Source: JBDRED01 sp043820025 [NCBI: Elusimicrobiota bacterium]
Lineage (GTDB): Bacteria; RUG730; JBDRED01
NCBI GenBank assembly: GCA_043820025.1
Contig: JBDRED010000027.1
Location: 1 to 31,333, forward strand
DNA length: 31,333 bases
Direction of reading: 5' to 3'
The notes under the pieces are model-generated. The model was not told the DNA's origin. It ran no database searches and was given only the letters and a program-made list of their open reading frames with translations. Position numbers and translations under genes: made by a program. This document shows positions 8,770-11,380 of the stretch, piece by piece (the first letter of the stretch is position 1; each line of letters begins with the position of its first letter).

Positions 8770-8785
8770 GTTAAATTATGAAATA

Positions 8786-8813
8786 CAGAAGCCAGAAGTC
8801 AGAAGTCAGAAGC
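8786..8813. repeat. Tandem 7-base repeat (CAGAAGY, four units)
   Basis: Four consecutive heptamers, cagaagc, cagaagt, cagaagt and cagaagc, occupy this stretch. The same CAGAANN heptad pattern forms the arrays flanking the four-helix-bundle gene at 10052-10079 and, inverted, at 10449-10490. This copy has no gene attached and may be a solo remnant. Confidence 0.75.
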
Positions 8814-8831
8814 CGGAATAGAGAAAGGAAT

Positions 8832-8922
8832 GTCATTGCGAGGCGAGTTACTGCGAGCCGTGGCAATCTTTGAGAAAGGAACCTTTTGCGGAGATCCTTC
8901 GGATAGTAATCCTCAGGATGAC
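8832..8922. repeat. Palindromic dispersed element, family 1 (intergenic copy)
   Basis: It runs from gtcattgcgag (8832) to cctcaggatgac (8922). The right part carries the gatccttcgg and cctcaggatgac motifs of the in-gene copy at 5551-5632. The left part (gtcattgcgaggcgag ... gtggcaatct) belongs to another common repeat type, so this looks like a mosaic of two repeats. It makes up the middle of the 341-base gap between the divergent protease and MoxR genes. Confidence 0.65.
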
Positions 8923-8967
8923 ATAGAGAAGAATTATAATAACCTTTGAAACTTTTTAACAACGATT

Positions 8968-9014: not shown

Positions 9015-9052
9015 ATAAGAAGAACTTATTAAACTTATTTTAGGAGGTGAAC

Positions 9053-10042
9053 ATGTCATTTGATATTAAGGCAATTAATGAGAAGGTAAAAAAGGAAAGT
9101 GAATTTGTCACTATACTTTTTGCGGAGATGGAAAAGGCTATTGTCGGACAGCGTGATTTGGTAGAGAAGTTTTTAGTCGGACTTCTTGCTGACGGGCATA
9201 TACTTATTGAGGGCGTGCCCGGGCTTGCGAAAACTCTGGCAGTTAAGACATTGTCCGACGCTATAACCGGGAAGTTTCAGCGCCTCCAGTTTACGCCTGA
9301 CCTTCTGCCTGCTGACTTGATAGGAACGCCGATATATAAACAGCAGGAAGGCGTGTTTGAGGTTAAGAAAGGCCCGATATTTGCGAATCTTATATTAGCC
9401 GATGAAATAAACCGCGCGCCTGCAAAGGTCCAAAGCGCGCTCTTGGAAGCAATGCAGGAAAGGCAGGTTACTATTGGAACGCAGACATTCCCTTTAGATA
9501 AACCATTTCTCGTTCTTGCTACGCAGAATCCTATTGAACAGGAGGGCACATATCCTCTGCCTGAAGCGCAGGTTGATAGATTTATGTTGAAGCTAAAGAT
9601 AACATATCCTACCAGAAAGGAGGAGGAAGAAATATTAAAACGCTACGCAAGCGGCCATGAGCCGACAATAAAAAATGTAATTTCATTAAAAGATATATTA
9701 AAAGCGCGGGAAATTGTGAATGAGGTTTATGTTGACGAGAAGATTCACAATTATGTTTTAGATATTGTTTTTGCAACGCGTAATCCTGAAGAGCATAATT
9801 TGGCGTCTTTAAAAGGCCTTATTAGTTATGGTTCTTCGCCAAGAGCTACTATTTATTTAGTTAAAGCCGCGAAAGCGTACGCCTTTCTGCAGGGACGCGG
9901 GTATGTAACGCCTGAAGATATTAAGGCAGTTAGCATGGATGTGCTGAGGCATAGGGTGATTGTAAGTTATGAGGCAGAAGCAGAAGATATGACATCAGAG
10001 GATATTATAAAACAAATATTTAATGAAATCGAAGTGCCGTAA
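9053..10042 (+). CDS. moxR: MoxR-family AAA+ ATPase, first gene of the Bat operon
   Basis: A 329-residue cytoplasmic AAA+ ATPase. Walker A is GVPGLAKT (residues 54-61), Walker B LILADE (113-118), and the sensor-1 region reads LATQNPIEQEGTYPLPEAQVDRF, typical of MoxR. A C-terminal AAA lid domain follows. Starting at ATG 9053 places the strong AGGAGG site (9042-9047) five bases upstream. A GTG at 9047 would lie inside that site and is rejected. MoxR proteins act with VWA/DUF58 partners as chaperones or in metal-centre maturation, and all partners follow here on the same strand. The distance to the DUF58 gene, normally a few bases, is expanded to about 460 by a four-helix-bundle gene cassette. 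Confidence 0.95.
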   Translation: MSFDIKAINEKVKKESEFVTILFAEMEKAIVGQRDLVEKFLVGLLADGHILIEGVPGLAKTLAVKTLSDAITGKFQRLQFTPDLLPADLIGTPIYKQQEGVFEVKKGPIFANLILADEINRAPAKVQSALLEAMQERQVTIGTQTFPLDKPFLVLATQNPIEQEGTYPLPEAQVDRFMLKLKITYPTRKEEEEILKRYASGHEPTIKNVISLKDILKAREIVNEVYVDEKIHNYVLDIVFATRNPEEHNLASLKGLISYGSSPRATIYLVKAAKAYAFLQGRGYVTPEDIKAVSMDVLRHRVIVSYEAEAEDMTSEDIIKQIFNEIEVP

Positions 10043-10046
10043 GAAA

Positions 10047-10079
10047 GAAGACAGAATTCAGAAGACAGAATTCAGAATT
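10047..10079. repeat. Left 7-base repeat array of the four-helix-bundle cassette
   Basis: From 10052 the heptamers cagaatt, cagaaga, cagaatt and cagaatt follow each other; equivalently, a 14-base unit is repeated twice at 10047-10074. The 18 bases at 10061-10078 (gaagacagaattcagaat) are a perfect inverted match to 10457-10474 beyond the gene. It starts five bases after the MoxR stop codon. Confidence 0.85.
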
Positions 10080-10094
10080 TTGGAGAATGTGTAA

Positions 10095-10463
10095 ATGGTG
10101 GATGGAGTGAAAAAATTCAATGATTTAATAGTTTGGCAAAAAGCTCATAGTTTAGCGTTAGGTGTTTATAGTTTTACTATGACTTTTCCGGATCATGAGA
10201 AATATTGTTTGATCTCACAATTGAGGAGATCTGCTGTATCTGTTCCTGCTAATATTGTTGAAGGTTTCAAAAAACGTGGTAAAGCAGATAAAATAAGGTT
10301 TTATAATATAGCACAAGGTTCTCTAGAGGAGACTAGGTACTATTTTATTCTTGCAAAAGATTTAGGCTACGGGAATTCTGATTCTTTAATGCTATTATTG
10401 GAAGAAGTAAGTAAATTGTTAGAAGTTTATATAAGTAGAATTAATAATAATTCTGGATTCTGA
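10095..10463 (+). CDS. Four-helix-bundle protein (23S rRNA intervening-sequence protein family)
   Basis: A 122-residue protein matching the four-helix-bundle family first known from 23S rRNA intervening sequences (S23/IVP, TIGR02436). The family signature is clear: FNDLIVWQKAHSLAL near the N-terminus, FPDHEKYCLISQLRRSAVSVPANIVEGF in the middle, and IAQGSLEETRYYFILAKDLGY after it. GGAG at 10082-10085 lies nine bases before the ATG. Family members are small, widespread and of unknown biochemical role; the same fold occurs in the Avd protein of diversity-generating retroelements. Here it sits between two genes that normally adjoin, enclosed by inverted 7-base-repeat arrays, and its last codons (SGF) and TGA stop are themselves array sequence. 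It is probably a recent insertion rather than a Bat component. Confidence 0.92.
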   Translation: MVDGVKKFNDLIVWQKAHSLALGVYSFTMTFPDHEKYCLISQLRRSAVSVPANIVEGFKKRGKADKIRFYNIAQGSLEETRYYFILAKDLGYGNSDSLMLLLEEVSKLLEVYISRINNNSGF

Positions 10464-10490
10464 ATTCTGTCTTCCGGATTCTGAATTATT
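10449..10490. repeat. Right, inverted 7-base repeat array of the four-helix-bundle cassette
   Basis: Consecutive heptamers aattctg, gattctg, aattctg, tcttccg, gattctg and aattatt are the reverse complement of the CAGAANN pattern on the left side. Positions 10457-10474 pair perfectly with 10061-10078. The stop codon of the enclosed gene (10461-10463) lies inside. The array ends immediately before the AGGAG site of the DUF58 gene. Confidence 0.85.
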
Positions 10491-10500
10491 AGGAGTTTTT

Positions 10501-10959
10501 ATGCTTCCGAAGGAAATATTTGCGCAAGTTAAAAAGATAGAAATAACGACAGGAAAGCTCGTTAATGAGGTATTTGCAGGCCGGTATAACAGCGTGTTTA
10601 AGGGCAGGGGAATGGAGTTTAATGAGGTGCGTGAGTATCAGATAGGCGATGATATACGGTCTATTGATTGGAACGTTACTGCGCGTATGGGCCATCCGTA
10701 TATTAAAAGGTATGTGGAAGAGAGAGAATTGACTGTAATATTGCTTGTAGATATGAGCGCGTCGCAAAAATTCGGCAGTCAGGAAAAATTTAAGTCAGCT
10801 ATTGCGGCTGAAATTGCGTCAATCCTTGCTTTTTCAGCAATAAAAAATAATGATAAAGTCGGAATGATAATATTTACAAATGAAGTGGAAAAATATATAG
10901 CGCCCAAAAAAAGGGCGCAAACATATTTTGCGAATGATAAGAGAAATTTTATTTTTTGA
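10501..10959 (+). CDS. DUF58 protein, N-terminal part (gene broken by a frameshift)
   Basis: The gene begins at ATG 10501 after AGGAG and encodes the conserved first half of DUF58 proteins, the VWA-like partners of MoxR: an N-terminal VFAGRYNSVFKGRGMEFNEVREYQIGDDIRSIDWNVTARMG segment, then a VWA-like part with LLVDMSASQKFG. Family sequence continues to residue about 137 (EKYIAPKK) and then changes to unrelated residues before a stop at 10957-10959. The rest of the family continues in the next frame from about 10907. The break falls on a run of seven A (10906-10912). Removing one A restores a single reading frame of about 292 residues, the usual DUF58 length. This may be a sequencing error, a true mutation or slippage. 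DUF58 proteins are expected to cooperate with MoxR at the membrane. Confidence 0.85.
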   Translation: MLPKEIFAQVKKIEITTGKLVNEVFAGRYNSVFKGRGMEFNEVREYQIGDDIRSIDWNVTARMGHPYIKRYVEERELTVILLVDMSASQKFGSQEKFKSAIAAEIASILAFSAIKNNDKVGMIIFTNEVEKYIAPKKRAQTYFANDKRNFIF

Positions 10960-11380
10960 GCCTAAAAATAACGGTACTGACATTAAGAATGCTCTTGAAT
11001 ATTTAAATGATGTGGTCAAAAGAAAGGCTGTGGTTTTCCTCATATCAGATTTTATTAATGAAGGTTATGAGCGTATGCTTAGAATTACAAATAAAAGACA
11101 TGATCTGATATCAATTATTCTCGATGATCCAAGAGAGAGGGATATGCCTGAATGCGGTATTGTAAGGCTTAGGGATGCAGAAACCGGACATGATTTAGAG
11201 ATAGACACAGGAGATTACTATTTTAAAAAAGTGTGGCATAAAAAGATTGAAGAGGTTATAAATAGCAGAAATAAACTATTAAGGTCTTCAGGTATTGACA
11301 GTATTACAATAACAACGGATGCGTCTTATGTTGAGCCGCTTATTAAGTTTTTTAAATTAAGAGAACGAAGATTGAGATAG
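10907..11380 (+). CDS. DUF58 protein, C-terminal part (out of frame with its N-terminal part)
   Basis: This frame carries the second half of DUF58: KKGRKHILRMIREILFFEP, then DIKNALEYLNDVVKRKAVVFLISDFI, RHDLISIILDDPRERDMPECGIVRLRDAETG and a final ITTDASYVEPLIKFFKLRERR. It has no credible start of its own. A TTG at 10928 exists, but nothing resembling a ribosome site is suitably placed and conserved sequence extends upstream of it. It should be read as the continuation of the gene starting at 10501, reached by a shift at the A7 run. The stop at 11378-11380 lies one base before the next start, as expected for an intact operon. Confidence 0.8.
   Translation, partial: KKGRKHILRMIREILFFEPKNNGTDIKNALEYLNDVVKRKAVVFLISDFINEGYERMLRITNKRHDLISIILDDPRERDMPECGIVRLRDAETGHDLEIDTGDYYFKKVWHKKIEEVINSRNKLLRSSGIDSITITTDASYVEPLIKFFKLRERRLR

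What the first reader, a model, noticed from the sequence alone, without database searches (positions are those of the whole stretch)
10047..10490. Four-helix-bundle gene carried in a cassette bounded by inverted 7-base-repeat arrays inside a Bat operon
MoxR and DUF58 genes normally adjoin. Here they are separated by a 23S-IVP-family gene enclosed by arrays of CAGAANN heptamers, inverted on the two sides, with an 18-base perfect inverted match (10061-10078 and 10457-10474). The right array supplies the gene's last codons and stop. A gene-less array with the same 7-base period lies 1.2 kb upstream (8786-8813). Together this looks like a small mobile unit in which the heptad array is the recognition or boundary sequence. 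These proteins are known from rRNA intervening sequences, but a heptad-bounded mobile cassette is not something I know as described.
Basis: partly seen in the sequence, partly recalled or inferred. Interest (0 to 1): 0.68.

Follow-up and report, generated by a model that had tools for sequence, protein, structure and literature searches.

The report
Small mobile gene with heptad-repeat ends
A gene for a small helical protein sits between two genes that normally touch, enclosed by mirror-image arrays of 7-base repeats; many relatives of this gene in several bacterial phyla are built the same way, which points to a very small mobile element whose ends are set by repeat length rather than by a fixed sequence.

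Summary
In detail: an IVP/S23 four-helix-bundle gene (PF05635, TIGR02436) lies between moxR and DUF58, enclosed by inverted CAGAANN-type arrays far beyond chance. Of 169 unique family genes with flanks, 135 have an array of period 7 or 8, or an inverted match, beside the gene; 34 have neither. Each gene's two arrays match each other inverted (72 of 96) but rarely those of other genes (3.4%). Units differ from locus to locus. Mobility is supported by comparison: hisH-hisA in Maribacter is occupied in one species and has 6-8 nt in five; some related copies at unrelated sites share arrays (8 of 17 pairs at 70% identity or more). Insertion favours the sense direction near an upstream stop codon. 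Gene-less heptad arrays also occur, including at 13 of 45 longer moxR-DUF58 junctions of relatives. The Coxiella 23S rRNA intervening sequence has a published stem and GACAGAT heptamers around the same kind of ORF, so this looks like an rRNA-IVS-type element outside rRNA. How it moves is not shown: reverse transcriptase is not linked to it and Y1-transposase loci lack heptads. New variant of a known kind.

The parts
9047..10042 (+). MoxR-type AAA ATPase gene, host operon gene on the left
   Evidence: PF07726 E=1e-65, PF17863
10045..10079 (+). left heptad array of the element (GACAGAATTCAGAA units); 2 nt separate it from the moxR stop
   Evidence: TRF periods 7 and 14; inverted arm 10045-10078; period-7 score 21/28, 0 of 2000 shuffles
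10061..10078 (+). left 18-mer of the perfect inverted match
   Evidence: read; inside arm I1
10095..10463 (+). IVP/S23 four-helix-bundle protein gene, 122 aa, no other Pfam domain at E<=0.001
   Evidence: PF05635 E=6e-35; TIGR02436 E=6e-33; PDB 2gsc E=3e-17
10449..10490 (-). right heptad array, inverse of the left one; supplies the last codons and stop of the IVP gene
   Evidence: TRF 10449-10487; inverted arms 10449-10474 and 10457-10490; translation ends NNNSGF*
10457..10474 (-). right 18-mer of the perfect inverted match
   Evidence: read; inside arm
10501..11380 (+). DUF58 gene, host operon gene on the right; split into ORFs 10501-10959 and 10928-11380
   Evidence: PF01882 E=2e-41 on the first ORF; ORF list; the second ORF was not searched
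8771..8830 (+). gene-less (solo) heptad array with a CAGAAGN unit, upstream of moxR
   Evidence: TRF 8786-8818; period-7 score 23, 0 of 500 shuffles

Best explanation
The cassette is a minimal mobile element of the rRNA-intervening-sequence (IVS) type, here inserted between two protein genes. The unit is left heptad array - IVP gene - inverted right array. Inferred life cycle: the unit inserts, mostly in the sense direction, close to the stop codon of a gene in an operon, so the host promoter drives the IVP gene and the array stem encloses it in the transcript. The IVP protein (a relative is reported as a pentameric ring) is the element's only product and most likely acts on the array hairpin, recognised by its 7-nt periodic inverted structure rather than its sequence, to promote movement with borrowed host enzymes. 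The arrays drift fast, and loss of the gene can leave gene-less hairpins. Shown by comparison: anatomy, family-wide association, an occupied/empty site, sharing of arrays by some related copies at unrelated sites, sense-strand bias, constraint on the protein. Inferred: that IVP drives movement, structure-based recognition, direction of gene loss, the enzymes used, RNase III release.
For: 96 IVP genes: best period-7 score averages 19.3 (left) and 19.1 (right) against 12-13 for periods 3-6 and 8-13 in the same flanks, 11.9/12.5 at period 7 0.8-1 kb away (82 genes), 12.2 in the gene. Left and right arrays match inverted in 72 of 96 genes, against 3.4% of pairings with other genes' flanks; 13 of 96 match in direct orientation. 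30 loci from mixed phyla: period-7 means 17.9/17.6 against 11.8/12.5. 135 of 169 overall by either criterion, 107 by the inverted match. Control: 0 of 21 Y1-transposase loci from the same phylum sample have a period-7 score of 19 on either side; IVP 62%/69% of 89 genes in equal windows. Neighbour orientation both sense 123, both antisense 2, mixed 19; left arm begins a median 6.5 nt after the upstream stop (76 of 86 genes; 10 without a fitting ORF dropped). Occupied/empty: hisH-hisA in Maribacter holds the unit in G091; five species have 6-8 nt there (gene names). Related copies: with coding parts left out, 8 of 17 non-syntenic pairs at >=70% protein identity share a non-coding array on a side, 2 of 17 on both (L104/L109, L147/L148); 10 of 90 at 60-70%, 17 of 511 at 50-60%, 18 of 2546 at 40-50%. 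dN/dS median 0.085 over 22 of 39 pairs. Window RNA folds with arrays enclosing the gene, z -4.0. Precedent: PMC4990558.
Against: No known transposase, integrase or polymerase domain in the protein. No clear target duplication (sites read by eye). Stem mismatches show no RNA bias: 112 G-U-type against 104 A-C-type in 75 stems. 34 of 169 genes meet neither array criterion. 9 of 17 close non-syntenic pairs share no array; a first count of 13 of 20 was too high because it included coding ends. At atpA-atpG gene-bearing and gene-less forms share arrays, but whether the gene was lost or gained is open. IVP presence does not cleanly predict arrays in unselected loci: 9.6 against 3.4 per 100 kb, Spearman p=0.007 but Mann-Whitney p=0.059 and Fisher p=0.32. 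In the his case the element could have entered in two steps (hairpin, then gene). The window's own genome is not held.
Confidence: 0.66

Rival explanations
1. Heptad hairpins are primary: ordinary intercistronic repeats, made by replication slippage and template switching, and the IVP gene homes into their loops, as it sits in rRNA helices.
For: Gene-less arrays occupy 13 of 45 longer moxR-DUF58 junctions (random segments 14 of 900), 11 of the 13 with an inverted pairing above 95% of shuffles; 3 of the 13 are in genomes without a detected IVP (L001, L035, L054). Gene-less heptad stretches stand at the sufC-sufD site of four Maribacter species (by eye). At atpA-atpG the gene-less G116 shares its right array with gene-bearing species. 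rRNA IVSs sit in pre-existing helices (PMC4990558); 7-nt repeats were linked by others to polymerase slippage (PMC4679880, introduction).
Against: Gene and arrays stand together at a site that is hairpin-free in five sister species; two non-syntenic pairs of genes share both arrays; Y1-transposase loci lack heptads; 1 period-7 array in 272 kb of IVP-negative Omnitrophota.
Confidence: 0.23
2. The unit is mobilised in trans by another element's enzyme: a reverse transcriptase (the Avd-like reading, since IVP is distantly related to the retroelement accessory protein Avd) or a Y1 (RAYT-type) transposase.
For: Weak Avd match (E=1e-4, far below cut-off). Y1 transposases in 33 of 36 IVP-positive and 15 of 22 IVP-negative genomes, Fisher p=0.03.
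Against: Reverse transcriptase in 9 of 36 IVP-positive and 6 of 22 IVP-negative genomes (Fisher p=1); genomes with 12, 7 and 6 IVP copies have no match. Three IVP-positive genomes have no Y1 match and Y1 loci carry no heptads. Genomes may be incomplete.
Confidence: 0.15
3. No mobility: an old regulatory gene of operons, with arrays as expression or processing elements.
For: Sense orientation in operons, strong purifying selection, an RNA stem in the window.
Against: 0 to 16 copies per genome within one genus; an occupied/empty site; related copies at unrelated sites; no G-U bias in the stems.
Confidence: 0.06

Closest known systems
23S rRNA intervening sequences (IVS) with an S23p/IVP ORF (Coxiella, Leptospira)
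   Same: Same protein family, sense ORF in the host transcript, terminal inverted stem, heptameric repeats next to the ORF in Coxiella (GACAGAT; PMC4990558), patchy occurrence
   Different: Window element lies between protein genes of an operon, not in an rRNA helix; unit sequence differs; RNase III excision not tested; gene-less arrays and many copies per genome in relatives
Heptamer direct repeats such as TAACTGA (Beggiatoaceae, Cyanobacteria; PMC4679880)
   Same: 7-nt tandem arrays between genes, suspected horizontal spread, several heptamers per genome in some species
   Different: Described as direct repeats with a proposed translational role; the terms S23, four helix and 23S rRNA do not occur in that paper's main text
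REP/RAYT systems and MITEs
   Same: Small inverted structures, gene-bearing and gene-less forms, intergenic sites
   Different: RAYT is a Y1 transposase; 21 Y1 loci tested have no heptads; IVP has no transposase domain; arrays have no fixed sequence
Diversity-generating retroelement protein Avd (NF033474)
   Same: Distantly related small protein
   Different: Score 22 against a cut-off of 80; no link to reverse transcriptase

Membership tests
IVP/S23 protein family (PF05635, TIGR02436) | profile match over the curated cut-off | tested here: met
   PF05635 120 bits against 33.8; TIGR02436 113 against 24
rRNA intervening sequence (IVS) | ORF of the S23p/IVP family in sense orientation of the host transcript | tested here: met
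   same strand as moxR and DUF58
rRNA intervening sequence (IVS) | terminal complementary stem enclosing the ORF | tested here: met
   arms; RNA fold z -4.0
rRNA intervening sequence (IVS) | location inside a 16S/23S rRNA gene | tested here: not met
   lies between MoxR and DUF58 genes
rRNA intervening sequence (IVS) | excision by RNase III without ligation | not testable with these tools
   needs RNA work
DNA transposon / MITE pair | terminal inverted repeats shared by family members | tested here: not met
   arms are inverted within a copy but mostly differ between copies
DNA transposon / MITE pair | encoded transposase | tested here: not met
   only PF05635 found in the gene
DNA transposon / MITE pair | target-site duplication | tested here: inconclusive
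   none evident by eye at hisH-hisA or atpA-atpG; few sites
Diversity-generating retroelement (Avd) | Avd equivalog score and a reverse transcriptase | tested here: not met
   22 bits against 80; RT in 9 of 36 IVP-positive relatives
REP/RAYT | Y1 transposase gene with REP arms | tested here: not met
   IVP matches no Y1 model; 0 of 21 Y1 loci have heptads

The most novel reading that the evidence does not exclude
IVP proteins are the agents of a so far unnamed class of mobile element whose ends are read by period and hairpin shape, not by sequence; the protein, acting also in trans, writes or spreads 7-nt arrays, so that a large share of the heptanucleotide repeats long noted in bacterial genomes are products or remains of these elements, and the rRNA intervening sequences are merely the copies that landed in rRNA.
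Probability: 0.33. Interest if true: 0.9.

Novelty: new variant of a known kind. Interest (0 to 1): 0.75.

Why it matters
It ties together two old loose ends: a common protein family of unknown function (four helix bundle / S23 / IVP) and the unexplained abundance of 7-base repeats in bacterial genomes. If right, it describes a roughly 400-base element with one protein of about 120 residues and no known transposase, which makes the old proposal that rRNA intervening sequences are mobile elements testable, and raises the question how ends that keep their period but not their sequence could be recognised.

Tried and rejected
RNA-stem selection: tested through G-U versus A-C mismatches, not supported. 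Reverse transcriptase dependence: no association. Y1 transposase as source of the heptads: 0 of 21 loci, although 57% of them have inverted flanks. A fixed 5-constant-plus-2-variable unit grammar: only weak clustering of variable positions, 1.15 times expectation in 149 arrays. A terminal motif outside the arrays: none evident in base counts. Concerted change of both arms: at atpA-atpG G091's own arms match at 44 against 10-26 with other species, but the other four species' own scores (18-24) are no higher than their cross scores, so this rests on one species. Strict dependence of solo arrays on IVP: strong in the Omnitrophota samples, weaker in unselected loci; one search is not a matched comparison (IVP-positive stretches were picked around IVP genes and only what lay over 4 kb away was kept; IVP-negative ones are contig starts). 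'All flanks share CAGAANN': 0 of 80 MoxR loci carry three strict CAGAANN units in a row, though some carry other heptads. Structure prediction was not run. Only an open-licence PubMed Central library was searched for papers.

Changes made when the report was checked: array sharing by related copies was recounted without coding sequence, which lowered it from 13 of 20 to 8 of 17 pairs; the direction of gene loss at atpA-atpG was withdrawn to 'open'; I therefore lowered the best explanation from 0.70 to 0.66 and the novel case from 0.35 to 0.33, and raised the first rival from 0.20 to 0.23. Gene names at the Maribacter sites, first read by eye, were tested. Inverted pairing in the 13 junctions was tested.

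Full report
What is in the window. Between moxR (9047-10042) and DUF58 (from 10501) lies a 122-aa gene of the 23S rRNA IVP family. A heptad array starts 2 nt after the moxR stop and its inverse follows the gene, supplying its last codons and stop. Shuffles never reach the observed values (0 of 2000; solo array 0 of 500). At the threshold used the window has three period-7 arrays: the two of the element and the solo one about 1.2 kb upstream. No genome is held for the window; the best MoxR matches (67-70% identity) are mostly Candidatus Omnitrophota, with other phyla among them.

The site. The MoxR scan kept the best 80 of 592 matches. 74 of the 80 have a DUF58 match behind MoxR and none of the 80 loci gave a match to the window's IVP. 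Of the 74 junctions 45 are 45 nt or longer, and 13 of these hold a period-7 array, each with its own unit: L001, L003, L004 and L024 (Omnitrophota), L056 (Anaerolineales), and L026, L035, L041, L042, L044, L048, L054, L063 (Bacteroidota); random segments of equal length give 14 of 900, periods 5, 6, 9 and 10 give 0 and period 8 gives 4. In 11 of the 13 the inverted pairing exceeds 95% of shuffles and in 9 all 200; L026 and L035 do not stand out. Three of the 13 (L001, L035, L054) are in genomes without a detected IVP. The window thus has a gene-bearing form at a junction where other lineages have gene-less forms.

The family rule. PF05635 was found in 8 of 11 first genomes (E<=1e-5), 36 of 58 genomes drawn from the phylum (E<=1e-12), 29 of 46 mixed genomes, 12 of 23 more and 9 of 12 Maribacter-genus genomes with up to 16 copies (these three E<=1e-10). 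In 96 unique genes the period-7 signal is 19.3/19.1 beside the gene, against 12-13 for the other periods from 3 to 13 and about 12 for distant controls; period 14, its multiple, is also raised. Left and right arrays of one gene match inverted in 72 of 96, direct in 13 of 96, and inverted to other genes in 3.4% of control pairs. In 30 further loci, the best matches, means are 17.9/17.6 at period 7; some, such as L194, L203, L212 and L214, show no clear array, and three (L196, L198, L204) look by eye like 8-nt units. Clear cases come from Anaerolineae, Armatimonadetes, an Obscuribacterium and Bacteroidota. Over all 169 genes with enough flank, 107 have the inverted match, 22 a direct match, 135 an inverted match or an array on a side, and 34 neither inverted match nor array. 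Y1-transposase loci from the phylum sample show inverted flanks in 57% but no heptads (0 of 21).

Movement. In Maribacter, hisH-hisA carries the unit in G091 and only 6-8 nt in G115, G116, G117, G118 and G120; G125 has a broken IVP unit with other arrays before hisA, and G119, G122 and G124 have another reading frame there without IVP. At atpA-atpG four species have the gene (G091, G115, G118, G125); G116 has arrays homologous to theirs without the gene, G117 a reduced version, and G119, G122 and G124 another palindromic repeat. A match of about 10 nt to the gene end in G116 and G117 is compatible with gene loss but too short to prove it. At sufC-sufD G091 has the gene, G115, G116, G118 and G125 gene-less heptad stretches, and five others palindromic repeats, all read by eye. 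Gene names at these sites are supported by NCBIfam equivalogs. Related copies at unrelated sites: with coding sequence left out, 8 of 17 non-syntenic pairs at 70% protein identity or more share an array on at least one side and 2 on both; 10 of 90 at 60-70%, 17 of 511 at 50-60%, 18 of 2546 at 40-50% (pairs with short flanks dropped: 3, 6, 21, 78). Three pairs were aligned in full: L104/L109 share both arrays; L154/L155, from different genomes, mainly the right; the two 91% identical copies in L156 share the inner part of the arrays while flanks are unrelated. So arrays travel with the gene at least at times, and drift fast.

Orientation and expression. Neighbouring genes are both in the sense direction in 123 of 144 cases and both antisense in 2 (simple ORF calling). 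The left arm starts a median 6.5 nt from the upstream stop in 76 of 86 genes with a stem, 24 overlapping the stop; 10 genes without an ORF end in range were dropped. The protein is under purifying selection (median dN/dS 0.085 in 22 of 39 pairs, not all independent) with near-invariant Q42, R45, S49, N53, E56 and E79 (154 sequences). The window RNA folds with the arrays closing the gene (z -4.0), but mismatches in 75 stems show no G-U preference (112 against 104), so the stem may matter at the DNA level or only reflect how it is made.

Solo arrays. In Omnitrophota, stretches of IVP-positive genomes over 4 kb from any IVP have 39 period-7 arrays in 253 kb; IVP-negative genomes 1 in 272 kb. In unselected MoxR loci the contrast is smaller: 44 in 457 kb (49 genomes) against 10 in 295 kb (31 genomes), Spearman 0.30, p=0.007, the other two tests not significant. 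Arrays of one genome share units far more often than arrays of different stretches (0.036); nearness adds to this in part: 0.42 below 1 kb against 0.21-0.26 further off in the phylum sample, 0.30-0.42 up to 30 kb and 0.10 beyond in Maribacter. In one 400-kb stretch 16 of 54 arrays have an inverted partner within 150 nt, in a Maribacter stretch 0 of 42, so hairpin form is not universal for solo arrays.

Known and new. The Coxiella 23S rRNA IVS has a 28-bp terminal stem, three GACAGAT heptamers before its S23p ORF and RNase III excision, and mobility had been proposed for IVSs (PMC4990558; outline, introduction, discussion and passages read). Heptamer repeats as such are known and unexplained (PMC4679880; outline, introduction, one results section and passages). 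IVP ORFs are reported in rRNA insertions of CPR bacteria (PMC11270868; one passage). A table of phage elements in two Flavobacterium columnare strains lists a four-helix-bundle gene between guanylate kinase and a nucleotidyltransferase gene (PMC5524665; passages). The searches listed no paper whose title or shown abstract states the rule found here; the library is open-licence only. The pentameric ring of a Xanthomonas S23p is from PMC4990558's introduction; that entry 2gsc is this structure is my inference.

Verdict. Observation confirmed; mobile-unit reading supported by comparison but not by experiment; a fixed heptad recognition sequence not supported. Filed as a new variant of the IVS kind, with the boldest open reading given separately.

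Noticed in passing
window 10928-10959: DUF58 is split by a frameshift near a T run (ORFs 10501-10959 and 10928-11380); assembly error, real lesion or programmed shift not distinguished.
   Followed up: no
window 8820-8940: Beside the solo heptad array lies a TGTCATTGCGAGGCGA...GTGGCAATC stretch resembling a dispersed repeat type recalled from other genomes (no call tested it); the two abut.
   Followed up: no
L335-L337 and L344-L345 (G091 C12 528-561 kb, C20 332-358 kb): Long composite heptad regions in Maribacter arenosus in which one unit type passes into another; gene content not examined.
   Followed up: partly
L242-L244, L309-L313: GTCATTCCTGC...GCAGGAATGACA-like palindromes stand at the same Maribacter junctions that hold IVP elements or heptad stretches in sister species.
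   Followed up: partly
L196, L198, L204: Some IVP elements look like they have 8-nt instead of 7-nt units (by eye).
   Followed up: partly
L349-L368 (G047 C3): A GTTCATN heptad family recurs many times in one contig, several as tight hairpins.
   Followed up: partly
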